A model generated the notes under the pieces. It was not told the origin of the DNA, searched no databases, and saw nothing but the letters and a program-made list of their open reading frames with translations. Positions 45,947-64,000 of a stretch of 64,000 nucleotides of DNA are shown here, one piece after another; the first letter of the stretch is position 1, and every line of letters begins with the position of its first letter. Location: NCBI RefSeq assembly GCF_000336755.1, contig NZ_AOLK01000023.1, positions 177,070 through 241,069 of the forward strand. The letters are read 5' to 3'. The position numbers and the translations under genes are program-made. Source of the stretch: Haloferax elongans ATCC BAA-1513 (GTDB lineage Archaea > Halobacteriota > Halobacteria > Halobacteriales > Haloferacaceae).

Positions 45947-47077
45947 TCAGGCGTGGATTGCGAGTTCGTCGTCGGTCGACTGCGAACTGTTCTTGAGCGC
46001 TTGGCCGGAGTCCGCATCGAACAGGTGGAGGTCATCCTCGGGGAATTGGAGCGTGACGTGTTCGCCCCGCTCGAACGCTTGCCCACCCGGGACGACGGCG
46101 GTGAACTGCTGCTCGCCGACGTTCAACGTGACGTGCGAGATGTCCCCCAGCGGCTCGACGAGGTGGACATCGGCAGCGACCGGGTTGTCCACGTCCGCCT
46201 CGTCGACGACGCGAATGTCCTCCGGTCGAATGCCCATCGTCACTCGGTCGTGGCCATCGACCACGTCGGCAGTCGTACTCGAGAGTTCGTAGTCGAAAAG
46301 CGAGTGTCTGAGCCGATTCCCTTCGACCGATGCGTCGAGGAAGTTCATCGAGGGCGCACCGATGAATCCGGCGACGAACTTGTTTGCTGGCTGGTGATAA
46401 CACTCCAGCGGCGTGCCGACCTGCTGTAACTCGCCGTGGTTGAGGATGGCGATTCGGTCACCCATCGTCATCGCTTCCGTCTGGTCGTGGGTGACGTAGA
46501 CGGTCGTGACACCGAGGTCGTCTTGGAGCGCTTTGAGTTCGGTTCGCATCTGCGTCCGAAGTTTCGCGTCGAGGTTCGAAAGCGGCTCGTCCATCAGGAA
46601 CACTTCGGGGTCGCGGATGATTGCCCGACCGAGCGCGACGCGCTGTTGTTGCCCGCCGGAGAGTTCCTTCGGATAGTCGTCGAGCAGTTCTTCGATACCT
46701 AGCGATTCGGCGACGTCTTCGACCTGCCGGTTCCGTTCGGCCGAGTCGAGGTCGCTCGTCATCTTCAGGCCGAACCCGATGTTCTCTCGGGTCGTCATGT
46801 GCGGATACAACGCGTAATTTTGGAACACCATGGCGATGTCGCGCTCGCGGGGTTCTAACTCCCGCACCGACTCCCCGTCGATGACGACGTCCCCCGCGGT
46901 GACCGACTCTAACCCGGCTATCATTCGGAGGGTCGTCGACTTGCCGCACCCGGACGGACCGACAAGCACCAGAAACTCGCCATCGTCGAGTGTTAAATCG
47001 ACATCGTCTACCGCGACGATATCCTCTCCACCTCCGGTGAACTCCTTCCGGAGGTTACGCAGCTCTAACTGTGACAT
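45947..47077 (-). CDS. MalK/UgpC-type ABC transporter ATP-binding protein
   Basis: 376 aa. Walker A GPSGCGKST (about 38-46), signature LSGGQQQRVALGRAI (about 139-153), Walker B FLMDEPLSNLD (about 160-170), H-loop VTHDQTEAM, and a C-terminal TOBE region (from about 240) as in CUT1 sugar transporters. It is most likely the ATPase for the binding protein and two permeases at 51496-54896, since those lack their own. Divergent from the SelA-like gene. Confidence 0.93.
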   Translation of the reverse strand: MSQLELRNLRKEFTGGGEDIVAVDDVDLTLDDGEFLVLVGPSGCGKSTTLRMIAGLESVTAGDVVIDGESVRELEPRERDIAMVFQNYALYPHMTTRENIGFGLKMTSDLDSAERNRQVEDVAESLGIEELLDDYPKELSGGQQQRVALGRAIIRDPEVFLMDEPLSNLDAKLRTQMRTELKALQDDLGVTTVYVTHDQTEAMTMGDRIAILNHGELQQVGTPLECYHQPANKFVAGFIGAPSMNFLDASVEGNRLRHSLFDYELSSTTADVVDGHDRVTMGIRPEDIRVVDEADVDNPVAADVHLVEPLGDISHVTLNVGEQQFTAVVPGGQAFERGEHVTLQFPEDDLHLFDADSGQALKNSSQSTDDELAIHA

Positions 47078-47245
47078 GCTTTCTCCCCAACCTTTAGATT
47101 CAAACTATATAATGCTTTGTCATCACTACCCACAGTCGTCGAAATGTCGCCGTCGTTGAGGCGAAGCGAATGTTTATGTGCCGAGAAAATGACACAGCAG
47201 AGTATCTGGAGTCACTAACGACTCGTTCGTTTCCAGTGAGCCACA
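47078..47245. promoter_or_regulatory. Divergent promoter region, malK-type gene versus SelA-like operon
   Basis: AT-rich ACTATATAATG at 47104-47114 is a likely TATA element for the leftward MalK-type gene, about 27-37 bases from its start. GTTTATGTG near 47171-47180 may serve the rightward operon. A shared regulator for both directions is plausible. Confidence 0.5.
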
Positions 47246-48472
47246 ATGACAGAGCAACGTTACCGGAGTCACACCGACTCCATCTACGGAGAGTTGGACG
47301 TCCCGACAGTGGTCAACGCAGCCGGGACGAAGACACGAATCGGCGGGAGCCTCATCAGAGACGAAGCCCTCGAAGCCATGCACAGTGCAGCATCGGCCTT
47401 CGTCGAGTTAGGAGACTTGCAGGCTGCGGCGTCGGACCGAATCTCGGAGGTGACTGGTGCGGAAGCCGGGTACGTCACCAGCGGGGCTGCGGCCGGGCTG
47501 TGTCTCTGCGCCGCTGCGGCCATCGCCGGGCACGACGTCGCGGCGATGGACCAACTCCCCGACACCGAGGGACTTCCGGGCGAGATTCTCATGCCCCGAA
47601 CGCACAGAACCGGCTACGACCACGCGCTTCGGACCGCAGGTGCGACCATCGTCGACGTAGGGACCAACGACCTGCATCTCGGAACCGGGTCGACGAGCGT
47701 CGAACCGTGGGAACTCGAATCGAACATCACCGACGAGACGGCGGCTATCGCCTACATCGAGAAATCGTACACTGAGCCACCACTCGACGTCGTCGCCGAC
47801 ATCGCCCACGACCACGACATCCCGGTCATCGTCGATGCCGCGGCCGAACTTCCGCCGCGGTCGAACTTCTCTCGCTTCATCGACCAGGGTGCCGACATGG
47901 TCGTCTTCAGCGGTGGGAAGGGAATCCGCGGCCCGCAGACGACGGGAATCGTCGCCGGCAAACAGGAGTACATCGAGTCGATTGCCATGCAGCATCTCGA
48001 CATGCACGTCGCCGAAGCGGCGTGGTCGCCGCCGAAGCGACTCGTCGACCTCGACAACTTCGCTGGTGTCCCCCGGCAGGGAATCGGCCGCCCGATGAAG
48101 GTCGGAAAGGAGGAACTTGCTGGCCTCATATCCGCACTCGACGCCTTCTTGGCCGAGGAACAATCCGAAACACAGCGCGAGTGGCAGCGTCGCGCCGACG
48201 ACATCGCACACGGTCTCGAAGACGCTGGCTTTGAGACACACGTCACGGGCGGCAGCGACGTCAGCGTCGCCCCCGAAGTCGTCGTCGACGTCGACAGCTC
48301 TTCGGAGACGACCGCACTCGAACTCGTTCGACGCCTTCGTGCAGAGAACCCCCGCGTCTACCTCGGTGGTGACAAACTCGACGAAGGCATCGTCGTCGCG
48401 AACCCCATGTGTCTGACCGACGAAGAGGCCGACTACGTCGTCGACAGAATCGTCGCCAACGTCGAGAACTGA
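47246..48472 (+). CDS. SelA-like PLP-dependent enzyme, predicted D-glucosaminate ammonia-lyase
   Basis: 408 aa, fold type I PLP enzyme of the SelA-related group that includes D-glucosaminate-6-phosphate ammonia-lyase (DgaE). PLP Asp in VIVDAAAE (Asp197); Schiff-base Lys in FSGGKGIRGPQ (Lys225), a motif typical of this group. N-terminal VVNAAGTKTRIGGSLI matches the family. Operon with the PIG-L deacetylase (48 bases downstream) and RidA. By context the substrate is likely D-glucosaminate, giving 2-keto-3-deoxygluconate and ammonia; other amino acids or amino-sugar acids are possible. It is too short for and out of context as a selenocysteine synthase. Confidence 0.85.
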   Translation: MTEQRYRSHTDSIYGELDVPTVVNAAGTKTRIGGSLIRDEALEAMHSAASAFVELGDLQAAASDRISEVTGAEAGYVTSGAAAGLCLCAAAAIAGHDVAAMDQLPDTEGLPGEILMPRTHRTGYDHALRTAGATIVDVGTNDLHLGTGSTSVEPWELESNITDETAAIAYIEKSYTEPPLDVVADIAHDHDIPVIVDAAAELPPRSNFSRFIDQGADMVVFSGGKGIRGPQTTGIVAGKQEYIESIAMQHLDMHVAEAAWSPPKRLVDLDNFAGVPRQGIGRPMKVGKEELAGLISALDAFLAEEQSETQREWQRRADDIAHGLEDAGFETHVTGGSDVSVAPEVVVDVDSSSETTALELVRRLRAENPRVYLGGDKLDEGIVVANPMCLTDEEADYVVDRIVANVEN

Positions 48473-48520
48473 CGGCGGAGAGTAACTTATTTTAGTCAGT
48501 TCGACGCACTGACAATCGCG

Positions 48521-49225
48521 ATGAACGTGTTAGCAATAGTCGCACATCCAGACGACGCTGCAATTTTCTGTGGCGGAACGCTCGCAAAGCACGCCGACCG
48601 CGGCGACCACGTCGCGGTCGCCCACATGACCCGTGGCGAGTACGGCGGGCTCGGAAGCGACACCGAAGAAGACGTTGCGGCGGTCAGAACCGAGGAGTCG
48701 CGTGCTGCCGGTGAGGTTCTCGGCGTCGACGAAGTCGAGTTCCTCGGGTTCAAAGACGGTCGTATCGAGTACTCGCTCGAAGACCGCTTCGTCCTCGTCG
48801 ACGCGCTCCGGAAGCACGACCCCGATATCGTCCTCACGCACTTCCAAGACGACTTTCATCCGGACCATCAGGCGACTGCCCGCCTCGTGACCGACGCGTA
48901 CTACATGGCGTCGCTCCCGCTCGCCGAGACCGACTACGAGCCGTGTGACCCCGACAACATCTACTACTTCGGAAAGCCGACCTCGTCGTTTGAGCCCGAG
49001 ACGTTCGTCGACATCTCCGGGTATCTCGATACGAAAATCGAGGCGCTCGAACAACACGAGTCACAGGTCGACTTCCTCGTCGAACACGGCGGTATCGACG
49101 CCGAATTCGACAACCTCGTCGATAGCCTCCGCGCCGAAGGAATGACGCTCGGCAAGCGAGTCGGCTGCAAGGCGGCCGAAGGATTTGCCCCGCTTCACGA
49201 ACAGGCGCAGGGCTACCTGCACTGA
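48521..49225 (+). CDS. PIG-L family deacetylase, probable GlcNAc or diacetylchitobiose deacetylase
   Basis: 234 aa zinc-dependent LmbE/PIG-L fold. The AHPDDAAIFCGGT motif (His9, Asp11, Asp12) and the second metal motif FHPDHQATAR (His113, His116) are intact. Archaeal diacetylchitobiose deacetylases (Dac) belong to this family. No signal peptide, so it acts in the cytoplasm after uptake. Co-transcribed with the SelA-like gene. Expected product: glucosamine (or GlcN-GlcNAc) plus acetate. Confidence 0.9.
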   Translation: MNVLAIVAHPDDAAIFCGGTLAKHADRGDHVAVAHMTRGEYGGLGSDTEEDVAAVRTEESRAAGEVLGVDEVEFLGFKDGRIEYSLEDRFVLVDALRKHDPDIVLTHFQDDFHPDHQATARLVTDAYYMASLPLAETDYEPCDPDNIYYFGKPTSSFEPETFVDISGYLDTKIEALEQHESQVDFLVEHGGIDAEFDNLVDSLRAEGMTLGKRVGCKAAEGFAPLHEQAQGYLH

Positions 49226-49343
49226 GTTTTGAGTACCCACTCACCTCTCACCACGCAGCACACACGACACAAGCCACACGACCCACAGACGACCCATACC
49301 GCACACCTCAACCCCAACACCACCTCAACACCTCACATCACCA
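49226..49343 (+). other. C/A-rich, G-poor leader upstream of the RidA gene
   Basis: From about 49232 to 49343 the plus strand consists almost entirely of A and C with very few G or T (for example CACCTCAACCCCAACACC). There is no reading frame or hairpin. It could be an unstructured RNA leader or spacer. Confidence 0.6.
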
Positions 49344-49718
49344 ATGCGCGAACTCACCACTGACGACGCCCCCGCAAGTATCGGCCCGTTCTCCCAAGGC
49401 ATCGAAACTGACGGCACCATCCACGTCTCCGGGCAGGGACCGATTGACCCCGAAACAGGCGACGTAGTCAGCCAAGACGTCCGTGAACAGACGAGACAGA
49501 CACTCGAAAACGTCGAAGCCGTCCTCCGTGCGGGCGGTGCGACCCTCGACGACGTGGTGAAAGCAACTGTCTTCGTCAACGACATGCGCTACTACGACCG
49601 CGTCAACGAAGTCTACGGCGAACTGCTCTCGTCTCCGTACCCTGCCCGCAGCGCGGTCGAAGTCGTGAAACTCCCCGTCGACATCAAAGTCGAAATCGAA
49701 GTCGTCGCCGAAGCGTAG
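49344..49718 (+). CDS. RidA family enamine/imine deaminase
   Basis: 124 aa. Rid signature: ASIGPFSQGIETDG (about 11-24), VKATVFVNDM (about 72-81) and the active-site Arg102 in PYPARSAVEV. RidA hydrolyses reactive enamine/imine intermediates released by PLP dehydratases, which fits exactly with the SelA-like ammonia-lyase two genes upstream. Cytoplasmic trimer expected. Convergent with the GH3 gene. Confidence 0.93.
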   Translation: MRELTTDDAPASIGPFSQGIETDGTIHVSGQGPIDPETGDVVSQDVREQTRQTLENVEAVLRAGGATLDDVVKATVFVNDMRYYDRVNEVYGELLSSPYPARSAVEVVKLPVDIKVEIEVVAEA

Positions 49719-49740
49719 CAGACTCGCGTTCGTCCGTCCG

Positions 49741-49832: not shown

Positions 49833-51425
49833 TCATTCGACGCCGGGAATCGTCACGGGTAACGTCCCGCTACCCTCTGTTCTCCCGAGGAGCACGTCCG
49901 CAAGAGCATCCAGCATCGCGGGCGAGTACCCGTAGCTCGTGAGATACGTCGAAACGTCGGGGAATGCGGCGAGGTCGTACGGGTCACGAACTGAGACGAC
50001 AGCCAGCTCGGTTCCTGCGTCGGCTATCTCGCTGACGACTCGCTCCTGTTCGGGATTCGACCGCGCGTGATACGTCGCGACGGCGACTTGCTCGCCACCG
50101 TCGAACGGGTGGTCGTACCCCGCAGGGTCCACAATCTGATGGAAATGGACTTCCACGTCGTGCTGCGCGAGTGACGCGAGGAGGTCGGCTGGGTCGTATC
50201 GGTCATCTTCGGCGTCAGACTGGGCGGACCCCGCGAAGCCGACGAAGTGAATCGGCTCGGACGTGTCGAATGGGACCGTCTCGGTACGGTCGCGGACGAC
50301 GGTCACGGACTCTCGTGCGAGTTCTCGCGCGACTGTTCGGGACTGCTCGACCGCTGCTTGCCAGTCACCCGAACCTGTGCGCCCATCCCCGAACTGCTGG
50401 CGCTTGTATCGCTGTACTCGCTCGAACGCGCTGTCGATTCGGGACTCGGGTATCTCACCGGACTCGACAGCCGCGACGACGCGCTCGATGGCGTCGCGTT
50501 GACGCTCCGGTGAGTGCGACACGAGCACGATGTCGCATCCCGCGTTAAGTGCCTGTACCGCGCCCTCGGCCGTGCCGACCGTCTCAGAGATGGCGTTCAT
50601 CTCCAGACAGTCGGAGACGAGCAGGCCGTCGAATCCAAACTCCTCGCGGAGGATACCCGTGAGAACGTCTTCTGAGAGCGTCGCCGGAAGCGTCTCGTCG
50701 CCCGTAATCGCCGGGAACGCGATATGCGTCGTCATGAGCGCGTCGATGCCGGCGTCGATAGCGCGGCGGAACGGGACGAACTCGACGGCTTCCAAGCGGT
50801 CTCTGTCGTGTGGGACGACCGGAAGCGACCGATGTGAATCGGTTTCGGTGTCTCCGTGGCCGGGGAAGTGCTTTCCGCAGGCGGCGACGCCAGCAGACTG
50901 GAAGCCCGACGCGAGCGCCGCGCCCAGTTCGCCGACGAGGTCGGGGTCGTCACCGAACGACCGGACGCCGATGACTGGGTTTTCGGGGTTGTTGTTCACG
51001 TCGAGAACCGGCGCGAAGTTCATCGAAATGCCGAGAGACGCGAGTTCTTCGCCGACCGTCTCGCCCGCCGTGCGAAGCGTGTCCGGGTCTCGTGTCGCAC
51101 CGAGTGCCATCTGGCTGGGTAACTGCGCTCCCCAGTCGAATCGAGAGACGACGCCTCCTTCCTGGTCGGTCGCAATGAGGAGTGGTGGCTGACCGGCATC
51201 GTGTGCGATGGTCTGGAGGTGGTCCGAGAGCGACGCGACCTGTCCGGGTGAGTCGATGTTCCGGCTGAAGTAGATGACGCCACCGAGATGGTGTGACGAG
51301 ACGAGCTGTTCGATGTCGTCGGTCGGCTCGGTGCCGTCGAATCCGGCGACGAACAACTGGCCGACCTTCTCTTCGAGCGGCACCGCCTGCACGCGGCGCT
51401 CTGTTATCGAGGCGTTGTCTGTCAT
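49833..51425 (-). CDS. GH3 beta-N-acetylglucosaminidase (NagZ-like)
   Basis: 530 aa. GH3 NagZ signature KHFPGHGDTETDSHRSLP (185-202), with the acid/base His198 in the D-S-H triad region typical of beta-N-acetylglucosaminidases, and the nucleophile Asp272 in VSDCLEMNAI. IATDQEGGVVSR (about 84-95) is also conserved. The C-terminal ~170 residues form an extra alpha/beta domain. There is no signal peptide, so chito-oligosaccharides should be imported before hydrolysis to GlcNAc. It lies downstream of the permease genes on the same strand. Confidence 0.93.
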   Translation of the reverse strand: MTDNASITERRVQAVPLEEKVGQLFVAGFDGTEPTDDIEQLVSSHHLGGVIYFSRNIDSPGQVASLSDHLQTIAHDAGQPPLLIATDQEGGVVSRFDWGAQLPSQMALGATRDPDTLRTAGETVGEELASLGISMNFAPVLDVNNNPENPVIGVRSFGDDPDLVGELGAALASGFQSAGVAACGKHFPGHGDTETDSHRSLPVVPHDRDRLEAVEFVPFRRAIDAGIDALMTTHIAFPAITGDETLPATLSEDVLTGILREEFGFDGLLVSDCLEMNAISETVGTAEGAVQALNAGCDIVLVSHSPERQRDAIERVVAAVESGEIPESRIDSAFERVQRYKRQQFGDGRTGSGDWQAAVEQSRTVARELARESVTVVRDRTETVPFDTSEPIHFVGFAGSAQSDAEDDRYDPADLLASLAQHDVEVHFHQIVDPAGYDHPFDGGEQVAVATYHARSNPEQERVVSEIADAGTELAVVSVRDPYDLAAFPDVSTYLTSYGYSPAMLDALADVLLGRTEGSGTLPVTIPGVE

Positions 51426-51495: not shown

Positions 51496-52419
51496 TCAGT
51501 GCTTCACGCTGCCGGAGGTCAGTCCAGAGACGATGGGCTTCTGGAACAGGACGAACAGGAACAACAGCGGAATCGTCGCCACCGTCGAGGCCGCCATCAT
51601 CTGCCCCCAGTAGGTCTGGGTCTGCGTCTGGAACTCCTGAATACCGATTGCGAACGGCGTGACAGTGTCAGAGCCGAGGACGGACGCGAACAACACCTCG
51701 TTGAACGCGAGGAGGAACACGAACATCGAGGTGGCGGCGATACCGGGGGCAGCCAAGGGCATCACGACGCGGAAGAGCGCGCCGAGTCGGGTACAGCCGT
51801 CGATTCGGGCCGCTTCACCCAGCGCCTTCGGGATGGTGTCGAAGTAGCCGCGAAGCATCCAGATTGCGAACGGGATGGTGAACGTCGAGTAGAGGAAGAT
51901 GAGCCCGTGATACGTGTCTTTCATCGGGATGCCGATCTGCATCTGGATGTTGATGAAAAGCAGGTACATCGGCAGGAGGATGAGCACGCCGGGAATCATC
52001 TGCGTCCCCAGAATCGACAGTTCGAGCTTTCCCTTCCCCGGGAAGTCGTACCGCGAGAACGCGTAGGCGGCGAGACTGGCGATGAGGATGGTGACGACCG
52101 TCGTCACGCTGGCGATGATGAGACTGTTCAGGAAGTAATCGAGCAGCGGGAAGCGCTGCCACATCTCGAAGTAGTTCGAGACGTGGAACTCAGTGGGAAT
52201 CAGCGTCGGATTCTCGGTCATCACCTGACTTCGGGATTTGAAGCTGTTCATCACCATCATCCAGATGGGGAACAGCGCGAACAGGAGCACCAATCCCAGG
52301 GCGAACCGGGCGAAGGCGTCGAAGAGGAGTTCGCGGCCGTCGGTCGACAACCGCCACGTCTCCGGGATGCGACCGCCTTCGTCTTCGCGTCGAAGTGCGC
52401 TCAACATCTCAGATTGCAC
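51496..52419 (-). CDS. Sugar ABC transporter permease, MalG type
   Basis: 307 aa with six membrane segments. The EAA loop reads GEAARIDGCTRLGALFRVVMPLAAPGI (about 206-232), which contacts the ATPase. The N-terminal ~30 residues are charged. Its start overlaps the end of the upstream permease gene by 11 bases, so translation is coupled. Partner of the MalF-type permease and the binding protein. Confidence 0.93.
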   Translation of the reverse strand: MQSEMLSALRREDEGGRIPETWRLSTDGRELLFDAFARFALGLVLLFALFPIWMMVMNSFKSRSQVMTENPTLIPTEFHVSNYFEMWQRFPLLDYFLNSLIIASVTTVVTILIASLAAYAFSRYDFPGKGKLELSILGTQMIPGVLILLPMYLLFINIQMQIGIPMKDTYHGLIFLYSTFTIPFAIWMLRGYFDTIPKALGEAARIDGCTRLGALFRVVMPLAAPGIAATSMFVFLLAFNEVLFASVLGSDTVTPFAIGIQEFQTQTQTYWGQMMAASTVATIPLLFLFVLFQKPIVSGLTSGSVKH

Positions 52420-53386
52420 CTCCCTCGAACTCGCCGCCGATGACGCGGGTGTAGTAGATGTACGCGAGAATCATGGCGACGATGAAGAGGACCGTACTCA
52501 TCGCCGCGCCGAGACCGAACGACCAGTTGGAGAAGGCGTAGTTGTAGATGAACAACATCAGCACCTTCCCGGAGTCGCTCGGACTCGCGCCGAGAAGCAC
52601 GTACGGGACGGTGAAGTTGATGAGCGTCCAGACGACCATCAACAGGACGATGACGACCGAGACGGGCTTGAGTTGCGGCATCGTGATGTACCGGAACTTA
52701 CCCCACCGACCCGCACCGTCGGTTTCGGCGGCCTCATAGAGGTGCTCTGGAATCGACTGAAGGCCCGCATAGAGCATAATCGCCGCCCACGGGAAGTTCT
52801 GCCACGTCCATACGGCGGTGATGGCGAATATCGACCGCGGGCCGATGAGCCAGAAGAACGACCCGTCGATGAGGCCGACCGACCGCAGGATGTGGTTTAT
52901 CATCCCGGTGTCGGTGCGGAACATCATCTGCCAGGTCAGGACGGTCACGACGGCGGGCGCAATCCACGGAACCAACACGAGCGTCCGCGCAGCGAGTTTC
53001 CCGCGAAAGTCCCGATTCAAAAGCAGTGCCGTCCCCAACCCGAGCGTGTAGATGCCGATGACAGACCCTACGGTGAAGATGAGTGTCTGGCGGAGCGAGG
53101 TCCAGAACTCGGCACCGACGATGGTGTTCGGGTTGAATATCTTGGCGTAGTTTTCGAACCCGACTATCGGCGCGTTCCACCAGTTCGACACGTACGACGC
53201 GTCGAGTTGGACGAAGCTGATGTAGAATCCCCAGATGATGGGGAGGAAGTGGATAATCCCCATCATCAGGAACGCCGGCAGCAGGAGTTTGTAGGCGAAT
53301 CGCGTGTCGTCGCCGAGTCTGGGTATCCGTACCTGTACCCAGTTCGGGATGGCTCTCGTGAAACCGCTTTTCGCACGTTCTAACAT
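52409..53386 (-). CDS. Sugar ABC transporter permease, MalF type
   Basis: 325 aa, six membrane segments, EAA loop at YEAAETDGAGRWGKFRYITMPQLKPV (about 217-242). IPRLGDDTRFAYKLLLPAFLMMGIIHFLPIIWGFYISF marks the first segment. It overlaps the MalG-type gene. Together they form the channel of a CUT1 importer. Confidence 0.93.
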   Translation of the reverse strand: MLERAKSGFTRAIPNWVQVRIPRLGDDTRFAYKLLLPAFLMMGIIHFLPIIWGFYISFVQLDASYVSNWWNAPIVGFENYAKIFNPNTIVGAEFWTSLRQTLIFTVGSVIGIYTLGLGTALLLNRDFRGKLAARTLVLVPWIAPAVVTVLTWQMMFRTDTGMINHILRSVGLIDGSFFWLIGPRSIFAITAVWTWQNFPWAAIMLYAGLQSIPEHLYEAAETDGAGRWGKFRYITMPQLKPVSVVIVLLMVVWTLINFTVPYVLLGASPSDSGKVLMLFIYNYAFSNWSFGLGAAMSTVLFIVAMILAYIYYTRVIGGEFEGGAI

Positions 53387-53579: not shown

Positions 53580-54896
53580 TCAGTTTTCGCTCAGGACGTT
53601 GTTCGCCTGCTGGACCGCTTTGTCGAGGGCGGCTTGCGTGTCGCCTTCGCTCCAGTCGCCACTGACGCCCTTCGTGAGCACGTCGGTGACGGCGTTCTTG
53701 ATGGTGCCTTCGACTTCGCCCCAGCCGATGACCTGTGGGAAGGTCTTCGCGCCCGGCAGGACCTCGTCGGCGAACGTCTGGTACAGCGGTCCAGAGAACT
53801 GCTCTTGGTCGAAGCCGCTTTTTATCGTCGGCAGGAAGCCGGTCATCGAGGCGATGTCGGCGTTGACGGACGGCTTCATCAGGTATTTCAGCCACTTTGC
53901 GGCCTCGTCCGGGTAGTCGGTCCACGGGTGGATACCGACGAGGTTGACCCCGTAGAACGTCGCAGACTGGCCGTTCGGGCCTGCCGGAGGTTTGTACACT
54001 GCCATGGAGTCGCGGGTCGCGTCGCCCTCGGAGACGACCTTATCGACCGTGTTGAGCGAACTCCATGTCCCCGCGATACGCTTGTTGATGAAGGCGCTGT
54101 CGCGAGCGGGGCCGTCCCACTCGGCGGATGCCTTCGGCGCGACCTTGTGCTTCGTCGCGAGGTCCTTGTAGAAGTTGAGCGCCTCGACCGCCTCGTCGCT
54201 GTTGAACACCGCCTCCGACTTATCGCCGGAGAGTAGCTTGCCACCCGCCTGCCAGACGAACATGGCGTAATACTGGGTCACCGCCCAGTTGTTCGCGCCG
54301 GGGAGTCCGAACAGGTGTTTGTCGGGGAACGACTCTTTGAACTGCTTGCTCTGCTCGACGAGTTGGTCCCACGAGGACGGCTGTTCACTGATTCCGGCCT
54401 CGTCGAGCAGTCCTTGATGGACGAGGTGGCCGCGCGGCCCCCAGAACCACGGGAAACCGGCGGTGATTCCGTCGTGTTGGGCGACGTTCGTCGGTTGGTC
54501 GTAGACGCCGTCGAGACTGGCACCGAGTTCGTTGAGGTCCATCCACGCGTCGGATTGGACCTGCTGAGGCATCCACGTCGAAGCGATTTCCTCGACGTCG
54601 GGGCCGTCGCGACTGGTGATGCTGTTGAGCTGTTTTTGCTTCGCGTTGCCCCAGCCCATCGTCTCGATTTCGACGGAGATGCCCGTCTCTTCTTCGAACT
54701 TTGCGGCGTGTTTCTCGTAGAATTTCTCGACGCCGCTGGTCGCAAAGTGGCGAGCCTTGAGCGTGACATCTCCGCTGGTCTGGCTGGTCGTGCCGGTGAA
54801 CTGCCCGAGACAGCCCGTCAGGCCCGTCGCCGTCGCGGCGCCGGCACCTGCGAGGAGTTGCCTCCGAGACAGGATACGCTTGCTAGTGTCTTCCAT
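53580..54896 (-). CDS. CUT1-type sugar ABC transporter substrate-binding lipoprotein
   Basis: 438 aa. SRRQLLAGAGAATATGLTGC is a Tat signal with lipobox (Cys at about 29). The mature part is a class D binding protein similar to maltose/trehalose- and chitobiose-binding proteins (FEEETGISVEIETMGWGNAKQKQLNSI, later GLPGANNWAVTQYYAMFVWQAGG). Context with GH3 and chitinases suggests binding of chito-oligosaccharides; ligand not proven. First gene of the leftward transporter operon. Confidence 0.93.
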   Translation of the reverse strand: MEDTSKRILSRRQLLAGAGAATATGLTGCLGQFTGTTSQTSGDVTLKARHFATSGVEKFYEKHAAKFEEETGISVEIETMGWGNAKQKQLNSITSRDGPDVEEIASTWMPQQVQSDAWMDLNELGASLDGVYDQPTNVAQHDGITAGFPWFWGPRGHLVHQGLLDEAGISEQPSSWDQLVEQSKQFKESFPDKHLFGLPGANNWAVTQYYAMFVWQAGGKLLSGDKSEAVFNSDEAVEALNFYKDLATKHKVAPKASAEWDGPARDSAFINKRIAGTWSSLNTVDKVVSEGDATRDSMAVYKPPAGPNGQSATFYGVNLVGIHPWTDYPDEAAKWLKYLMKPSVNADIASMTGFLPTIKSGFDQEQFSGPLYQTFADEVLPGAKTFPQVIGWGEVEGTIKNAVTDVLTKGVSGDWSEGDTQAALDKAVQQANNVLSEN

Positions 54897-57025: not shown

Positions 57026-58096
57026 TTAGCGTTCCGACGGCGAGACGAACTCGACGGCGGTCTTGATTTGGTCGGTGTTTCGCTCGAAGGCTGCACTCGG
57101 GTCTTCCGCGGGAACGACTTCCGTGACGATGTCGTCAACGAACCAGTCGGGAAGCGACGAGACCGTCTCGATGGCGTCCTCGAAGTGCGGGATGTGAGAG
57201 TTGACGCTCCCGACGAGTGCCTTGTTCTGTAGCACCATCTCGCGGTGGAGCCGACCGCCTTCGATTTCGAACGACCAGTCACCGGGGACGCCGAGCAGCG
57301 CGCCCACGCCGTTCGGCGCGAGCGCATCGAGCACTTCGAAGGCGTGTTTCGCGTATCCGGTTGCCTCGACGGCGATATCGACGTGCCCGTGTTCGGCTGG
57401 AATCTCGGGGACCGGCGTCTCCCGCGAATCGACGTAGGTCGCGCCGAGTTTCTCGATGATGTCGATGCTCGGGTCCGGACGGTCCCGACGACCCAGACAG
57501 TAGAGGTCGTCCACGTCGCGGGCGAGCCGCGCCAGCGTCAACAGTCCGAGCGGGCCGTTTCCGAGGACGAGCGCCGACTCCGGTTCCCACGTGAACGCCG
57601 ACCGGGTCGCATAGGCGTGTTCGAGTGCTTTCTCCGCGTTACTCATCGGCTCGACGAGGAAGCCGTGTGGGGCGAGCGACTCCGGAATCTCCACGAGGAA
57701 CTCCGCCGGACTCGTGAAGTACTCGGACATGTAGCCGTGGGCGTCCACGATACCGCGTTCGACGTACTGCCCGTCGGGGGCCATGTCCGGTTCCCCGCGC
57801 TCGAAGTATTCGTTCGTCCCGTTCGGCGGGCGGCGCACGGTCGGCATGACGAGGTCGCCGACATCGAAGCCCGTCGTGGTCGGGTCGACGACGACGCCGA
57901 TAGCCTCGTGGCCGAGGATTTGGTAGTCGTCGCCCGGCGGGAACCCGCCGTGTGTTCCCTTGATGACCTCGTGGTCAGTGCCATCGACGCCGACTCTGAG
58001 TGTCTCGACGAGCACTTCGCCGGGTTCGGGCTCTGGTGTCGGAACGTCGATGACACGAGGTAATTCTTCGCCGCGATGGACAGCGATGGCGCGCAT
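57026..58096 (-). CDS. Glucose 1-dehydrogenase-like medium-chain dehydrogenase
   Basis: 356 aa from the ATG at 58096 (MRAIAVHRGEELPRV), matching the haloarchaeal GDH N-terminus; an ATG 18 bases upstream exists. Hallmarks of the Haloferax GDH family: RVGVDGTDHEVIKGTHGGFPPGDDYQILGHEAIGVV, the PTVRRPPNGTNEYFERGEPDMAPDGQYVERGI segment, ALVLGNGPLGLLTLARL Rossmann motif (about 175-191) and CLGRRDRPDP. It oxidises an aldose at C1 with NAD(P). In this locus the substrate may be glucosamine, giving glucosaminate. Convergent with IclR (17 bases). Confidence 0.92.
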   Translation of the reverse strand: MRAIAVHRGEELPRVIDVPTPEPEPGEVLVETLRVGVDGTDHEVIKGTHGGFPPGDDYQILGHEAIGVVVDPTTTGFDVGDLVMPTVRRPPNGTNEYFERGEPDMAPDGQYVERGIVDAHGYMSEYFTSPAEFLVEIPESLAPHGFLVEPMSNAEKALEHAYATRSAFTWEPESALVLGNGPLGLLTLARLARDVDDLYCLGRRDRPDPSIDIIEKLGATYVDSRETPVPEIPAEHGHVDIAVEATGYAKHAFEVLDALAPNGVGALLGVPGDWSFEIEGGRLHREMVLQNKALVGSVNSHIPHFEDAIETVSSLPDWFVDDIVTEVVPAEDPSAAFERNTDQIKTAVEFVSPSER

Positions 58097-58297: not shown

Positions 58298-59725
58298 TCA
58301 CTCGCTCGTGAACGGGGCGAAGAGCGACGAGAACTCGTACGGTTCTTGGTCGATGCCGCTTTTGACGGGTGAGACCTCGCCCGAGCCGGTGCCGTTGTCC
58401 CGGTCGATAGACCAAAACGAGAGCATGCCGACATCGTTGTTCTGTGCGAAGTCAAGGACCTGCTCCGCGTCGGACTGGGTGAACTTCCCGCCGACGTTGT
58501 TCACACCAATCATTGGCGTGATTCCGACCATGCTCCAGCGTTCGGCGGCCGATTTGTCGGGGAAGAGGTCGCCGAGGTCGTCGTGAAGGTTACTGGCCGA
58601 CTGGGTGACGATGTCGCCGCTCGGCTCGACCCACCCGTAGTTCATCGTCATGATGTTCACCGTGTCGATGGTGACACCCTTGTCGATGGCGTCCTGCAAC
58701 ACGTCTTTGCCCTGTGCGGTCAGTCCCTTCGTCGAGGTTGGGAGCGTAAAGGAGACGCTGACCTCGGGGCGACGTTCCTGAAGCGTCGCGAGCGCCTTGT
58801 TCCGGCGCTTGACCGTCGCCATGGCGAACGCCTCTTCGTCGATGTCCAGATGGGTCGCACCGTACGCATCGACGACCGCCTCGAAGCGGTCGGCGAGAAC
58901 CGCCGGGTCGTTGGTCCCGTCGGCGAGATATGGCCCTGCCGCCCCACCGAAGGCGATGATGGCCTCACCACCAGCGTTGTGGATGTCGTCGATGTAGCCG
59001 CCGACGGACGACTCTCCGACGAGTTTGTTCGCGTCGCCGTCCCACGCTGGCTGTCCGTCCGGCCCGGCAAGGACGAACGCGAGATGGAAGTAGTTCGTTC
59101 CGGCCTGCTGTGCGTGGTCTATCGGGGCGGTTTCGGGCTTCGTAGAGACGTGGTCGTACGGCGCGAACACGCTCGACGGGAGACCGTCAGCCGGTGTTCC
59201 ACCGCCACCATCGGATGATTCGACGGTGACGGTCTTGCTCGTCGCGTCGGTCGCGCTGTCTGCACCGGTGACGGTGAGTTCGACCGTGTACGACCCCGTG
59301 GAGGCGAAGGAGTGCGAGACGGTCTTCCCCGTCGCGCTCTCGCCGTCGCCGAAGTCCCAGTCGTAGCTGTCGATGCTTCCGGTGGAGTCGCTCGCGTCGA
59401 AGGAGACCGACGTGTCGGGCGTGACCGTCGCGTCGTCGATAGTGAACGCCGCGGAGAGGGTCTCGCCGCCGCCACCGCCACCGTCTGCGGGACCGACTTT
59501 GGTCCAGTAGGCCGAGTCCTCGGCGGGTTCGGCGTTTCGAGAGGAGAGGTCGGCTTCCCAGATGTACCCGTCGTGGGTGACGCGGTCGCCTTCCTCGTAG
59601 AGCGTGGAGTCGTCCCACTTCGGCGGCGACTCGGCCGCGACTGCTGTCGATGCTGCGCCGACGCCAGCGACTGACGTGACGAGTGCCGAGACGTTTCTGA
59701 GGTAGGTTCGACGGTGCTGTGTCAT
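58298..59725 (-). CDS. GH18 chitinase with chitin-binding and PKD domains
   Basis: 475 aa. Signal peptide 1-30 with RRTYLRN (Tat-like). Chitin-binding domain of the CBM5/12 type at about 34-78 (PKWDDSTLYEEGDRVTHDGYIWEA). Gly-rich linker (81-87). PKD domain at about 88-170 (YDWDFGDGES). Catalytic GH18-like domain from about 182, with the D-x-D-x-E motif DIDEE (294-298, catalytic Glu298); the first Asp of the classical DGxDxDxE is replaced (THLDIDEE). Secreted chitinase. Last of four tandem chitinase genes. Confidence 0.93.
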   Translation of the reverse strand: MTQHRRTYLRNVSALVTSVAGVGAASTAVAAESPPKWDDSTLYEEGDRVTHDGYIWEADLSSRNAEPAEDSAYWTKVGPADGGGGGGETLSAAFTIDDATVTPDTSVSFDASDSTGSIDSYDWDFGDGESATGKTVSHSFASTGSYTVELTVTGADSATDATSKTVTVESSDGGGGTPADGLPSSVFAPYDHVSTKPETAPIDHAQQAGTNYFHLAFVLAGPDGQPAWDGDANKLVGESSVGGYIDDIHNAGGEAIIAFGGAAGPYLADGTNDPAVLADRFEAVVDAYGATHLDIDEEAFAMATVKRRNKALATLQERRPEVSVSFTLPTSTKGLTAQGKDVLQDAIDKGVTIDTVNIMTMNYGWVEPSGDIVTQSASNLHDDLGDLFPDKSAAERWSMVGITPMIGVNNVGGKFTQSDAEQVLDFAQNNDVGMLSFWSIDRDNGTGSGEVSPVKSGIDQEPYEFSSLFAPFTSE

Positions 59726-59776
59726 GGGTAGATCGTGAGTGGTTGGTATGTCATGGGTGAGTCGTGTGGTTCTGCG

Positions 59777-61267
59777 TCATTGGTCGGCCGTGAACGGATT
59801 GAGGATGGACGAGAACTCGAACGGTTCCTGCTCGATGAGCGTGCTCTCGTAGAGTTTGTCGCCCTCGCCGTTGTCGCGGACGAGTTCCCAAAACGAGAGC
59901 CACCTGAGGTCGTTGTTCTGTGCGAACTCGAGGACCTGCTGCGCGTCTTCCTGATAGAACGTCCCACCGATGTCGTTGACGCCGATCATCGGCGTGAGTC
60001 CGAGCATGCTCCAGCGCTCGGCAGCGGACTTGTCCGGGTAGAGGTCGCCGAGTTGCGCGTGGACGTTCTCGGCCGCGCTGATGGCGTTTTCGGCGTTCGG
60101 CTCGATGTCCGCGCCGTAGTCCATCACCATCAGATTGACCGCTTCGAGTTCGACGCCCTTCGAGACGGCATCTTCGAGGACGAACAGTACGTCGTTCGAG
60201 GAGTGGTCCGGGAAGCCCGAAGGCATCACCGGGAGCGTGTAGGAGACGCGCAGGTCTGGGTACTCCTCTTGGAGCATGACGAGCGCCTCGTTTCGGCGGC
60301 GAATCGCCTCTTCATCGCGGCTGATAAGCGACTCCTCGTCGAAGTCGATGAACGTGAGATCGTACGTATCGACGACGGTCGCGTAGGCGTCTTTCAACTC
60401 GCTCGCGCTCGAAATCGCCTCGGCGAGATACGTCCCGTTGAGACCGCCGAAGGAGACGATGACCTCGCCGCCGTGTTGGTCTCGGAGTTCGGTGAGTTGC
60501 GTGCCGACATCGAGCCAGTTGCTGGGTTCGCCGACTTTCTGGCTTCCGGCCCACGCCGGGTCGCCGTTTCCATCGGCGAGGACGAACGCGAGCGTGAAGT
60601 ACTCGGTTCCGGCGGCCTCGACGTTTTCGGCCAGCGAAAGCTGGTCTTCCAGCATCATATCGACGAACGGGGCGAAGATGCGGTCCGGAATCGGGTTCGC
60701 CGAGGGGACGCCGTCGGCGTCGACCGTGAGTTGTTTCGTCGCGTCGGCCGTGTCGCCATCGGCGTCTGTCACGGTCAGCGAAATCGTGTACTCGCCGGTG
60801 TCGTCGTAGGCGTGAGACGCGGTGACCCCGGTTTTCGTCGTTCCGTCGTCGAAGTCCCACTCGTAGCTTTGCAGGTCGCCGGTCGAGGCGCTGGCGTCGC
60901 AACTGACCTCGGTGCCGGGCTGGACGAACGTGGAACTCACGTCGAAGGCGGCAGTCGGGGGGTCGCCCGCGTTGTCGGCGGCTTCGATTCCCTTCCACAT
61001 GTTCGCGTCGTCGCTCGGTTCGTCGCCTTTCGTCCACCACTTCGCCTCCCAGATGTAGGCGTCGTGAGTGACACGGTCGCCGTCGGTGTAGACCGTATCT
61101 GGGTCCCACTGCGGCGGGTCGCTTGCCGCTGCGACTGAACGGATTCCCGCGGACGAGAGCCCGGCGACACCAGTCAGTCCCGCGAGCGACCGGAGGACCG
61201 ACCGCCGGTTCTGTTTGCGTGGGCTGTTGGAGTCTCGGTCTTTCGAGTTGTCAGAGTTCCGCATCAT
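59777..61267 (-). CDS. GH18 chitinase with chitin-binding and PKD domains
   Basis: 496 aa. Start ATG at 61267 overlaps the stop of the upstream chitinase gene (ATGA); the next codon is also ATG. Tat-like RRSVLRSLAGLTG signal (about 21-47), CBM5/12 domain (about 52-93, with WEAKWWTKGDEPSDDANMW), PKD domain (about 105-182), and a catalytic domain (about 192-496) of the same subfamily as the neighbour at 58298, with DFDEE (308-312, catalytic Glu312). Secreted. Ends 51 bases before the next chitinase gene. Confidence 0.93.
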   Translation of the reverse strand: MMRNSDNSKDRDSNSPRKQNRRSVLRSLAGLTGVAGLSSAGIRSVAAASDPPQWDPDTVYTDGDRVTHDAYIWEAKWWTKGDEPSDDANMWKGIEAADNAGDPPTAAFDVSSTFVQPGTEVSCDASASTGDLQSYEWDFDDGTTKTGVTASHAYDDTGEYTISLTVTDADGDTADATKQLTVDADGVPSANPIPDRIFAPFVDMMLEDQLSLAENVEAAGTEYFTLAFVLADGNGDPAWAGSQKVGEPSNWLDVGTQLTELRDQHGGEVIVSFGGLNGTYLAEAISSASELKDAYATVVDTYDLTFIDFDEESLISRDEEAIRRRNEALVMLQEEYPDLRVSYTLPVMPSGFPDHSSNDVLFVLEDAVSKGVELEAVNLMVMDYGADIEPNAENAISAAENVHAQLGDLYPDKSAAERWSMLGLTPMIGVNDIGGTFYQEDAQQVLEFAQNNDLRWLSFWELVRDNGEGDKLYESTLIEQEPFEFSSILNPFTADQ

Positions 61268-62976
61268 TGGTTTAGCTGCCCGTGAATGGCGTCGAGGAGC
61301 GTTCCGTTGTAGTCCTGCGACAGTTCCCAGAACATCACGCCGCCGAGCCCTCTGGACTTCGCGAGTTTGACCTTCTCTTCGATAGAGGCGGGGTCGTCGT
61401 AGCTGATGAAAATCCCCTGTTCTTCGTTCCAGAGCCACGGCACCTGTCCCTGCTCGTTGACGTTCTTCTCCCAGCCGTTGGCACCTTCGTAGTTCTCTTC
61501 GAGATCGCCGTAATCGAACGCGCCGGTGTTGGCCTGGTCGGGACCGAGGAGGTCGTTCCACGTTCCCGGCGGGATAACCTCGTTTTGGTGCTCCGGGTCG
61601 CCCTGTTGCCAGTCGGAAAGCGAGAACGTGTCCCAGATACCGTTTTCGACCTTGCAGCCGCGGCCGTAGAACGGCATGCCGAGCACGAGGCTTGCGGGGT
61701 CCTCGACAGGCTCACCGTAGTCTTCCCACTCCATCCAGTCGACCCAGTAGCCTTTGTTTTTCCAGATTTCGAGTGTCGTCTCGATGGTGTACTGCTGGGC
61801 GTCCCCAGAGGGTGGGTAGTCGTCGGGCGTGCCGTAAATCGGCGCGTTCAGCCCCGCAGTCTCGTGCCAGACGCCGGTGAAGTCGTACGCCATCATATGA
61901 ATTTCGTCGACGACGCGCTCGACCTCGCGGTGCTTGATGAGCGAGGCGTTCCAGTCGGACCCGCCGTTTGCGACAGACAGGTAGTACGTCCGGTCGTCTT
62001 CTTCTTCGACTGCGTCGAGTTTGTCTCGGACTGCCTGAAGCAGTTTGACGTGGTTCGCTGGTCCTTCGGCGCTCCCGCACTCACAGACGCCGCGGTTCGG
62101 ACCGGGGTGTTCCCAGTCGATGTCGATGCCGTCGAAGTCGTACTGCCGCATGAGCGAAACCGCGGTGTTTGCGAATCGCGTCCGGTTCTCTTCGGTTGCG
62201 GCGGCGTCTTCGAATCCGGGTGAGAGTGCCCACCCGCCGATAGAGAGTTTGAGGTCCGTATCCGACGCCGGACCTTGCTTGAGGTCGGCAAAGGACTGAA
62301 GCAGGCTTTCGTGGTTGACTTCGCTGTCCGGGATAACGACGCTTCCGTCCGGTTTCACGTCGAGGAAGGCGTACAGGACATCCGTGACCTTGTCGAACGG
62401 GATGTCTTCGGGATAGTACTGGTAGTCCTCGTTGCCCTTCCAACTCGGGTAGTAGCCGACGATGCTGAATTCCTCGGACGGTGCGTTCTCCGAGACCGTG
62501 ATTTGTTTCGAGGTGGAGTCGCTCGCGTCGCCGTCGCTCACGGTGAGTGTGACCGTGAACTCCTGTTCGGCGTCGTACGTGTGTGATGCGGTTTGTCCAG
62601 AGGCGGTCGTCCCGTCGCCGAAGTCCCAGTCGTAGCTGGATGGACTCCCGTCGGACCCGCTTGCGTCGACCGAGACCTCGACACCCGGCTCGACGTAGGT
62701 ATCGCTGACGGTGAACGAGGCTTTCAGCCCGTTTCCGCCACCTGCCTCCTCGATTTGTTTCCAGACGTTCGAGTCGGTGGATGGCTCGTCACCTTTCGTC
62801 CACCACTTGGCTTCCCAAATGTATCCGTCGTGAGTGACGCGGTCGCCACCCGTGTACGCGACGTCGGATTCCCAAGCCGGTGGTGTGTCTGCTGCCGATG
62901 CGGTTACGCTCGCACCCGAGAGGAGCGCGAGCAAGGCTGACGTGTTCCGAAGGTAGTCTCGTCTGTTTTGTCTCAT
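61264..62976 (-). CDS. GH18 chitinase, canonical catalytic motif, with chitin-binding and PKD domains
   Basis: 570 aa from the ATG at 62976 (MRQNRRDYLRN, Tat-like); a longer frame upstream lacks a signal and is unlikely. CBM5/12 domain at about 32-76 (TPPAWESDVAYTGGDRVTHDGYIWEAKWWTKGDEP), PKD at about 84-162, catalytic GH18 from about 170 with canonical FDGIDIDWEHPG (281-292, catalytic Glu289) and MAYDFTGVW. A CECG insertion follows the active site. The stop overlaps the next chitinase start. A different catalytic subfamily from the two genes downstream of it. Confidence 0.95.
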   Translation of the reverse strand: MRQNRRDYLRNTSALLALLSGASVTASAADTPPAWESDVAYTGGDRVTHDGYIWEAKWWTKGDEPSTDSNVWKQIEEAGGGNGLKASFTVSDTYVEPGVEVSVDASGSDGSPSSYDWDFGDGTTASGQTASHTYDAEQEFTVTLTVSDGDASDSTSKQITVSENAPSEEFSIVGYYPSWKGNEDYQYYPEDIPFDKVTDVLYAFLDVKPDGSVVIPDSEVNHESLLQSFADLKQGPASDTDLKLSIGGWALSPGFEDAAATEENRTRFANTAVSLMRQYDFDGIDIDWEHPGPNRGVCECGSAEGPANHVKLLQAVRDKLDAVEEEDDRTYYLSVANGGSDWNASLIKHREVERVVDEIHMMAYDFTGVWHETAGLNAPIYGTPDDYPPSGDAQQYTIETTLEIWKNKGYWVDWMEWEDYGEPVEDPASLVLGMPFYGRGCKVENGIWDTFSLSDWQQGDPEHQNEVIPPGTWNDLLGPDQANTGAFDYGDLEENYEGANGWEKNVNEQGQVPWLWNEEQGIFISYDDPASIEEKVKLAKSRGLGGVMFWELSQDYNGTLLDAIHGQLNQ

Positions 62977-63154
62977 AGTGGTGTTCCCTTCGCCAACGTG
63001 CTGGCGACAGACACTGTACAGGGCAGAGATTGTTAAACTTTGATGAAAAATAAATTTTAGTCTAACTTCAGAGGATTTTGCAGCCGCTACGGGACGCACC
63101 TCGGGAGGAGGTGCAGGAGACTGGTACGTGTACAGGCGACGCTATCGTGGAGCC
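62977..63154 (-). promoter_or_regulatory. Terminator-like hairpin and promoter between chitinase genes
   Basis: A perfect 7-bp inverted repeat GCACCTC (63096-63102) and GAGGTGC (63108-63114) lies about 40 bases after the upstream chitinase stop, followed on the minus strand by A/T-rich sequence, consistent with termination. AATAAATTTTA at 63047-63060 (about 70-80 bases from the next ATG) is a candidate TATA element, so the three downstream chitinase genes may have their own promoter. Confidence 0.55.
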
Positions 63155-64000
63155 TCAGAGGTGGTCGAGGAGCGTGTCGAGGAGCACCTCGTTTTTGTCA
63201 CCCGAGAACGCCCAGAACATCAGCCCGCCGAGGTTGTTTTCGAGGGCGTAGTCCGTCTTGATGCCGACGGATTTCGGGTTGTCGTAGCTGACGAGTACGT
63301 CCGAGCTACTGGAGTAAATCCACGGGACCTTGGCGGTGTCGTCCCAGTGGTACTCGTACTCGGAACTCGGTTCGAGATTCTGGTTGATGTCCCAGAATTC
63401 CATGATACCGTTGTCCTGGCCCCACGTTCCGTCTGGAGAGCCGTCGAAGGACTGGTAGAGCCCGCCGTTGTCGCTGCTCGCGACGTTGCCGAAACTCCGG
63501 CCGTAGAACGGAAGCCCCATCGAGAGCTGCGAGCTATCGAAGGCAGTGTTCGCCCAGTAGGTCATCGCAGCGTCAACGTTGAAATCCTGTGCACGCGGCG
63601 AGGGGTCGTTGTCCTTGTAGTACAGCGGACTCTGGTGGTTCGTGTACTCGTCGAAGGCTCCGTGGAAGTCGTAGGTCATGACGTTCAGGAAGTCCAGGAG
63701 CTCCGAGTTCTGCTGGTGGTCGAGTCCCTCGTTTTTCTGCGGGTCGGCCGACAGCGCGGAGGTCAAGAGGTACTCTTGGCCGTCTTCCTTTTCGGCTGCG
63801 TCAAGTTCACTCCGAACCGCAGCGAGGAGGTCGGTGTAGCGCTTCTTGTCGCCGTCGCGGACGATGTTCCCCGACTTGCCGCCACCGCCGGGGTACTCCC
63901 AGTCGATGTCGAGCCCGTCGAAGTTGTGCGCACGCATGATTTCGACGGCGGTCTTCGCGAAGCGCTGGCGACTCGCCTCGGTCTCGGCCGCGTTCGAGAA
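63155..64000 (-). CDS. GH18 chitinase, C-terminal part (5' end outside window)
   Basis: The frame is open to the right edge, so the ATG at 63937 is internal. The visible ~281 residues start with FSNAAETEASRQRFAKTAVEI and contain canonical FDGLDIDWEYPGG (catalytic Glu in IDWE), MTYDFHGAFDEYT and GLMFWAFSGD. Closest in the window to the canonical chitinase at 61264. N-terminal domains and signal are unseen. First of four tandem chitinases in transcription order. Confidence 0.93.
   Translation of the reverse strand, partial: FSNAAETEASRQRFAKTAVEIMRAHNFDGLDIDWEYPGGGGKSGNIVRDGDKKRYTDLLAAVRSELDAAEKEDGQEYLLTSALSADPQKNEGLDHQQNSELLDFLNVMTYDFHGAFDEYTNHQSPLYYKDNDPSPRAQDFNVDAAMTYWANTAFDSSQLSMGLPFYGRSFGNVASSDNGGLYQSFDGSPDGTWGQDNGIMEFWDINQNLEPSSEYEYHWDDTAKVPWIYSSSSDVLVSYDNPKSVGIKTDYALENNLGGLMFWAFSGDKNEVLLDTLLDHL

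What the first reader, a model, noticed from the sequence alone, without database searches (positions are those of the whole stretch)
45947..64000. Chitin island that appears to encode a non-phosphorylative amino-sugar pathway
The sequence shows, in one locus, chitinases, a CUT1 importer, a GH3 beta-N-acetylglucosaminidase without signal peptide, a PIG-L deacetylase, a glucose-dehydrogenase paralogue, a SelA-like ammonia-lyase, RidA, an enolase-superfamily dehydratase and an IclR regulator. Families known: PIG-L enzymes deacetylate diacetylchitobiose in other archaea, and PLP enzymes convert D-glucosaminate to 2-keto-3-deoxygluconate (KDG). Inference: chitin to GlcNAc to glucosamine to glucosaminate to KDG, feeding the semi-phosphorylative Entner-Doudoroff route. 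No amino-sugar kinase or NagB/GlmD-type isomerase is visible in the window. Haloarchaeal chitinase clusters have been reported (Haloferax mediterranei, from memory), but I do not know of this downstream route being described.
Basis: partly seen in the sequence, partly recalled or inferred. Interest (0 to 1): 0.85.

Follow-up and report, generated by a model that had tools for sequence, protein, structure and literature searches.

The report
Haloferax chitin-to-KDG amino-sugar gene cluster
A salt-loving archaeon carries a chitin gene island that probably oxidises the amino sugar and strips off its nitrogen before any phosphate is added; a similar route was predicted in 2025 for a relative, but with an early phosphate step that these sequences argue against.

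Summary
Window 45947-64000, from a Haloferax genome (PLP gene 97% identical to H. larsenii), encodes chitinases, a CUT1 importer, a GH3 N-acetylglucosaminidase, a PIG-L deacetylase, a SelA-like PLP enzyme, RidA, a second glucose-dehydrogenase paralogue, an enolase-superfamily protein and IclR. The set is not chance: the PLP gene is in 89 of 391 Halobacteria genomes, and all 56 of the 391 with a close PIG-L relative also have it.

The route is not new in outline: PMC12343721 (2025) predicts GlcNAc to GlcN to glucosaminate for Natrarchaeobius, with an unknown kinase before the lyase. New invariant basic residues mean that a relocated phosphate site is not excluded.

Unexpected: the cluster's 'galactonate dehydratase' has both catalytic His replaced in every lyase-linked copy read (38 distinct sequences) and in none of 25 unlinked copies. 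Its published label is doubtful and its role open. No activity is shown for any protein here.

The parts
45947..47077 (-). CUT1-type ABC transporter ATPase (UgpC/MalK-like)
   Evidence: Pfam ABC_tran + TOBE_2 + OB_MalK; NF008653 453 bits, cut-off 432
47246..48472 (+). SelA-like fold-type I PLP enzyme, proposed D-glucosaminate ammonia-lyase making KDG
   Evidence: Below NCBIfam cut-offs for DgaE (TIGR01437 206 of 385 bits; NF047797 188 of 600); PDB 7LC0 E 1.8e-40; model pLDDT 81.1, VIA Z 37.9 to 7LC0 and 39.6 to Cap15 8T7J; phosphate Arg lost
48521..49225 (+). PIG-L/CE14 deacetylase, proposed GlcNAc or chitobiose deacetylase
   Evidence: PIG-L 122 bits; best PDB relative archaeal diacetylchitobiose deacetylase 8BGN E 1.2e-24, HPDD and HPDH motifs aligned
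49344..49718 (+). RidA-family enamine/imine deaminase
   Evidence: PF01042; TIGR00004 148.5 bits over cut-off 106
49833..51425 (-). Intracellular GH3 beta-N-acetylglucosaminidase
   Evidence: PF00933 329 bits; NF003740 229.5 over 207; 6K5J E 7.3e-130; no signal peptide by eye
51496..52419 (-). CUT1 permease (MalG/GlcU-like)
   Evidence: BPD_transp_1
52409..53386 (-). CUT1 permease (MalF/UgpA-like)
   Evidence: BPD_transp_1
53580..54896 (-). Sugar-binding lipoprotein of the importer
   Evidence: SBP_bac_8; sugar-binding PDB relatives, best 7X0I E 3e-27
55043..56194 (+). Enolase-superfamily protein like galactonate dehydratase with rewired active site (R186, N286, D311, D147; window numbering), reaction unknown
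   Evidence: NF010624 593.9 over 311 bits; 3RR1 E 9e-130; residues
56265..57008 (+). IclR-family regulator
   Evidence: HTH_IclR + IclR_C
57026..58096 (-). Second glucose-dehydrogenase paralogue with Asn154, proposed glucosamine or GlcNAc 1-dehydrogenase
   Evidence: Glu_dehyd_C 299.6 bits; 2B5V E 4e-154; N154 vs I154 split
58298..59725 (-). Chitinase, CBM5/12-PKD-catalytic domain, Tat-like signal
   Evidence: 2DSK E 6.8e-60; PKD and CBM_5_12
59777..61267 (-). Chitinase-like, CBM5/12-PKD-catalytic domain (start corrected from 61561)
   Evidence: PKD, CBM_5_12; start; catalytic part by resemblance to 58298-59725, by eye
61264..62976 (-). GH18 chitinase, CBM5/12-PKD-GH18 (start corrected from 63099)
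   Evidence: Glyco_hydro_18 234.8 bits; start
63155..64000 (-). GH18 chitinase, runs out of the window (539 aa in all)
   Evidence: Glyco_hydro_18 229.3 bits; whole gene L148:225-1844

Best explanation
A chitin utilisation island with an oxidative, late-phosphorylating amino-sugar route. Secreted chitinases cut chitin; a CUT1 importer takes up chitobiose or GlcNAc; the intracellular GH3 enzyme frees GlcNAc; PIG-L removes the acetyl group; the cluster glucose-dehydrogenase paralogue oxidises C1 (the order of these two steps is open); the SelA-like PLP enzyme eliminates the 3-OH of unphosphorylated D-glucosaminate and gives 2-keto-3-deoxygluconate (KDG) plus ammonia through an enamine/imine that RidA helps to clear; KDG kinase and KDPG aldolase encoded elsewhere finish as in the semi-phosphorylative Entner-Doudoroff route. 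Shown here: the genes, their linkage, the residue patterns, the downstream genes. Inferred: every reaction. The enolase-superfamily member has no assigned step.
For: Co-occurrence: PLP gene in 89 of 391 genomes; 56 of 391 have window-type PIG-L at E<=1e-60 and all 56 are among the 89, 36 of the 59 PIG-L genes within 3 kb and 46 within 10 kb of a PLP gene. In 79 PLP loci, 53 carry at least one and 43 at least two of close PIG-L, GDH, DgoD, RidA relatives. Second strong GDH copy in 7 of 8 PLP-positive and 0 of 4 PLP-negative genomes; cluster GDHs have Asn154 in 28 of 28, housekeeping GDHs Ile154 in 12 of 12, one change on the tree. Phosphate Arg cluster 301/332/346 named for DGL in PMC9529869: R332 is Gly in 77 of 77, R346 Met in 68, R301 Glu in 50 of 77. 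The loop with the proton donor His163 has no His in 75 of 78; in DGL, H163A is reported to release the enamine, and RidA to break down such enamines, which fits the neighbouring ridA (40 of 79 loci). NagB 0 of 12 genomes; no stand-alone SIS deaminase in this genome. Two haloarchaeal KDG kinases over cut-off, NF041332 531 and 514 vs 440 bits, one divergent to a KDPG aldolase gene 222 bases away. No LPMO in this genome, so C1 oxidation would have to be enzymatic inside the cell.
Against: No biochemistry. The haloarchaeal PLP enzymes have gained invariant basic residues that DGL lacks (K29, R31, R38, R121, K173, R228, R370), so a relocated phosphate site is possible; R301 stays Arg in 5 and R346 in 5-6 relatives. 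The position of His163 in the alignment is not stable (differ). 26 of 79 PLP loci have none of the four partners within about 9 kb, others lie with sulfatases, MocA-type oxidoreductases or DPP-type transporters, and 18 relatives from bacteria and other archaea lack PIG-L/GDH neighbours, so the PLP family may serve other amino acids or amino-sugar acids. One ROK kinase is present, but in all 12 genomes. Five Haloarcula-type loci carry a two-SIS protein beside the cluster, which would fit a phosphorylated route. The fold match to Cap15, an O2-dependent PLP enzyme, is as good as to DGL. The second KDG kinase/aldolase pair also occurs in PLP-negative G040.
Confidence: 0.6

Rival explanations
1. 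[quoted passage not shown]
For: Closest solved, assayed relative acts on the 6-phosphate (7LC0); PfkB kinases are present, one of them untyped (L145), and one ROK; new invariant Arg/Lys could hold a phosphate.
Confidence: 0.22
2. Classical hydrolytic route: GlcNAc or GlcN kinase, then NagA and NagB/GlmD to fructose-6-phosphate; the island only supplies GlcN.
For: One ROK kinase in the genome; SIS protein in Haloarcula-type clusters.
Against: NagB 0 of 12 genomes; no stand-alone SIS deaminase in this genome; does not explain lyase, RidA and second GDH. NagA was not searched.
Confidence: 0.06
3. The PLP enzyme acts on another amino acid or does O2-dependent Cap15-like chemistry, and the cluster is a generic amino-sugar-acid module.
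For: Cap15 match Z 39.6 vs DGL 37.9; diverse other neighbourhoods.
Against: 56 of 56 association with the PIG-L gene; RidA and GDH neighbours.
Confidence: 0.12

Closest known systems
Predicted GlcNAc pathway of Natrarchaeobius (PMC12343721, 2025)
   Same: Same gene set: chitinases, ABC importer, CE14, GH3, GDH, DGA, GAD, IclR, RidA-type gene ('RutC').
   Different: They place an unknown kinase before the lyase and call the enolase protein galactonate dehydratase and the RidA-type protein a transcription repressor; the residues argue against the first two, and RidA is better read as an enamine/imine deaminase. Their strains AArcht4T and AArcht7 have an LPMO (AArcht4T = G312); this genome does not.
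Ong pathway of Pseudoalteromonas (PMC9537276, 2022)
   Same: Deacetylation and deamination before phosphorylation, KDG then KDPG, essential RidA-family protein OngD.
   Different: There the oxidised sugar comes from an LPMO, the deacetylase OngB is D-aminoacylase-like and OngC is fold-type III; here PIG-L, fold-type I PLP enzyme, GDH oxidation, KDG kinase outside the cluster.
[quoted passage not shown]
   Same: Fold, PLP Lys, Arg242/Lys245/Lys248 equivalents.
   Different: No Arg332, mostly no Arg346/Arg301, no His pair in the loop, below family cut-offs.
Archaeal diacetylchitobiose deacetylase (8BGN)
   Same: PIG-L fold family and metal motifs.
   Different: Remote in sequence (E 1e-24); here joined to an oxidative route.
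D-galactonate dehydratase (3RR1)
   Same: Over NCBIfam cut-off; metal ligands kept.
   Different: Both catalytic His replaced, plus E to D and N to D.

Membership tests
[quoted passage not shown]
   Lys225 aligned in 77 of 77; VIA Z 37.9, 355 aligned, rmsd 2.7
[quoted passage not shown]
   Window has Glu/Gly/Met; Arg332 in 0 of 77
[quoted passage not shown]
   Window loop has no His; His in the loop in 3 of 78; alignment there unstable
[quoted passage not shown]
   NF047797 187.9 of 600 bits; TIGR01437 206.3 of 385.3
[quoted passage not shown]
   needs assay
Ong pathway | RidA-family gene in the cluster | tested here: met
   49344-49718
Ong pathway | Fold-type III deaminase OngC | tested here: not met
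   the lyase here is fold-type I
Ong pathway | LPMO source of oxidised sugar | tested here: not met
   PF03067 absent in G000, present in 1 of 12 genomes
Ong pathway | KDG kinase in the cluster | tested here: not met
   two KDG kinases, both on other contigs
Natrarchaeobius predicted GlcNAc cluster | CE14, GDH, DGA, GAD, IclR, RidA-type gene, GH18, ABC importer together | tested here: met
   the same genes in L033 (G312), in other order
D-galactonate dehydratase | Family HMM cut-off | tested here: met
   NF010624 593.9 vs 311 bits
D-galactonate dehydratase | Mg ligands D/E/E | tested here: met
   58 of 58 linked rows
D-galactonate dehydratase | Catalytic His pair (roles recalled) | tested here: not met
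   Arg and Asn in 58 of 58 linked rows, His/His in 25 of 25 unlinked
Classical NagB route | NagB-family deaminase in the genome | tested here: not met
   PF01182 0 of 12

The most novel reading that the evidence does not exclude
The island runs an archaeal chitin route in which the amino sugar is oxidised and deaminated wholly without phosphate by a new fold-type I lyase, and the lyase-linked enolase-superfamily protein is a new activity, born from galactonate dehydratase by swapping both catalytic His, that works on the amino-sugar acid, its N-acetyl form or its lactone.
Probability: 0.35. Interest if true: 0.75.

Novelty: new variant of a known kind. Interest (0 to 1): 0.58.

Why it matters
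Chitin and GlcNAc breakdown in haloarchaea has no proven route after GlcNAc. The residue evidence turns a published sketch with a missing kinase into a sharper, cheap-to-test claim (lyase before kinase), ties the lyase's missing proton donor to the neighbouring RidA, and flags a conserved enolase-superfamily protein in print as 'galactonate dehydratase' whose active site has been rebuilt, i.e. a candidate new enzyme found in at least five haloarchaeal families.

Tried and rejected
Tried: GH18 tblastn counts over the 79 loci - uninformative, because the loci reach only about 9 kb and the chitinases diverge; dropped. Identity alone to separate cluster from housekeeping GDH - fails (61-68% either way), so I used a tree and position 154. 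A second KDG kinase/aldolase pair as a cluster marker - rejected, since PLP-negative G040 has one. f15 as a missing kinase - no Pfam, NCBIfam or useful PDB match, left open. Searching literature for the catalytic His of galactonate dehydratase and for residue 154 of HmGDH: nothing on the His roles, only Glu64/Glu150 as coordinating residues for HmGDH. A claim that the route is unpublished - rejected.

Dropped rows: 2 of 79 loci (L063, L101) gave no called PLP gene and are not in the 77-sequence alignment, though tblastn finds the gene in all 79. Of 10 GDH stretches fetched, 3 did not yield a usable ORF and were left out. About 19 of the 98 listed PLP hits longer than 300 residues were not fetched as 20-kb loci. 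One 'linked' enolase copy (L244, G073) lies at a contig edge on another contig than the PLP gene. The 25 unlinked copies were picked by me: 5 from the 12-genome panel, 20 from the class list; 21 come from PLP-negative genomes and 4 from positive ones but far away or on another contig. Phylogenetic relatedness is not controlled in the co-occurrence figure.
Full report
What is there. The genome is a Haloferax: named relatives of the PLP enzyme are H. larsenii (97%) and H. mucosum (89%). In the sample, 3 of 15 genomes of this genus have the PLP gene.

Is it more than chance. The PLP gene is found in 89 of 391 Halobacteria genomes, 32 of 86 genera. A close PIG-L relative (E<=1e-60) is found in 56 of 391 genomes, and all 56 have the PLP gene; 36 of 59 PIG-L genes lie within 3 kb, 46 within 10 kb, 57 within 45 kb of one, 2 on other contigs (hypergeometric 8e-45, relatedness not controlled). 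Of 79 PLP loci of about 20 kb, 40 have a close RidA, 37 a close PIG-L, 31 the enolase-superfamily protein, 28 the GDH; 43 have at least two of the four, 26 have none. The order of genes differs between families, which makes the linkage more telling.

The PLP enzyme. Its fold is that of DGL and Cap15 (model pLDDT 81.1 from 14 sequences; VIA Z 37.9 and 39.6, next row 25.9). DGL's phosphate was docked by its authors at Arg301/332/346, with His163 as proton donor (PMC9529869, parts 1 and 2 of 3 read). In 77 haloarchaeal relatives Arg332 is always Gly; Arg346 is Met in 68 and Arg in 6; Arg301 is Glu in 50 and Arg in 5. Arg332 is also missing in 17 of 18 remoter relatives, mostly bacterial. Checks by motif agree: P-x-[VI]-[YF]-x-G-x-D in 77 of 78, Met in the N-P-x-C site in 69 of 78. 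The loop has no His in 75 of 78. In DGL the H163A change was reported to release a free enamine, and the authors name RidA as the kind of enzyme that removes such enamines. A ridA gene next to a lyase that lacks this His is what one would then expect; this link is my inference. Against: new invariant basic residues K29, R31, R38, R121, K173, R228 and R370 might hold a phosphate elsewhere.

GDH. All 8 PLP-positive genomes in a panel of 12 have a housekeeping GDH at >=300 bits; 7 of 8 have a second at >=240 bits, 0 of 4 PLP-negative Haloferax do. Cluster GDHs have Asn at HmGDH position 154, 28 of 28; housekeeping ones Ile, 12 of 12, and form one clade (support 0.976; one change by parsimony). 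Glu150, four residues before, is described as a coordinating residue of HmGDH (PMC11194214, passages). That Asn154 tunes C2 specificity is inference.

The enolase-superfamily protein. It passes the galactonate dehydratase model (593.9 vs 311 bits), but compared with 3RR1 it has Arg for His at 186 and Asn for His at 286 (window numbering), Asp for Glu at 311 and Asp for Asn at 147; metal ligands stay. In 58 rows of lyase-linked copies (38 distinct sequences with the window's) all four changes are fixed; in 25 unlinked copies none occurs. Only five positions separate the two sets at my thresholds, and four of them are these. The genome's other, 36% identical dehydratase keeps both His. That the two His are general acid and base in galactonate dehydratase is recalled (Gerlt-group work), not from a call. 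In the window copy the Asp partner of the second His is Val; 26 of 31 linked copies keep Asp. I therefore do not give it a dehydratase step.

Downstream. Two KDG kinases over the haloarchaeal cut-off, two bacterial-type KDPG aldolases, one pair divergent on contig C1; one ROK kinase shared by all 12 genomes; no NagB; SIS proteins only of GlmS size in this genome. Haloarcula-type clusters (5 of 79 loci) add a two-SIS protein that scores 165 bits to GlmS and 105 to GlmD, both below cut-off; those organisms may differ. No LPMO here; one in G312, which is Natrarchaeobius chitinivorans AArcht4T by its contig length.

What is in print. PMC12343721 (passages) describes this cluster in Natrarchaeobius and predicts CE14, then GDH, then an unknown kinase, then DGA to KDPG; it names GAD without giving it a step in the passages that I saw. 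PMC9537276 (abstract, passages) proves the non-phosphorylated order in a marine bacterium with unrelated enzymes. PMC3102087 (passages) found no complete GlcNAc route in ten early haloarchaeal genomes. PMC13260240 (passages) had no mention of glucosamine, ammonia lyase or KDPG by those terms. I found no paper with the lyase-before-kinase order in haloarchaea or with the enolase residue change, in searches of the open-licence PMC library; subscription papers (for example the Haloferax mediterranei chitin work, recalled) were not available. D-glucosaminate ammonia-lyase as an activity (EC 4.3.1.9) is old knowledge, recalled.

Verdict. Real, coherent, and mostly a new variant of a known kind. The boldest part that survives is the rewired enolase-superfamily protein.

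Noticed in passing
L056:7959-8963 (-), also in 10 other PLP loci: A 334-aa protein family beside the PLP gene in 11 of 79 loci with no Pfam or NCBIfam match and no meaningful PDB match; may be a hydrolase that replaces GH3.
   Followed up: partly
L053:16729-17760 (+) and four other Haloarcula-type loci: A 343-aa two-SIS protein beside the cluster, GlmS/GlmD-like but below both cut-offs.
   Followed up: partly
L094, L091, L097, L066, L095 and similar: PLP-gene relatives near sulfatase, MocA-type oxidoreductase, xylose-isomerase-like, FAA-hydrolase or amidohydrolase genes, hinting at use on other amino-sugar acids.
   Followed up: no
L148:7168-8325 (-), about 5 kb beyond the last chitinase: Protein with an eCIS_core domain.
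   Followed up: no
L148:13782-17358: GH68 levansucrase-like and GH32 genes about 12 kb beyond the last chitinase.
   Followed up: no
G000:C1:11735-13404: Divergent KDG kinase / KDPG aldolase pair on another contig; the same pairing in G113, G076, G312 and G040 by coordinates.
   Followed up: partly
G000 contigs C15, C19, C2, C23: Four ORFs of 624-706 aa with two SIS domains each, i.e. four GlmS-like proteins in one genome.
   Followed up: no
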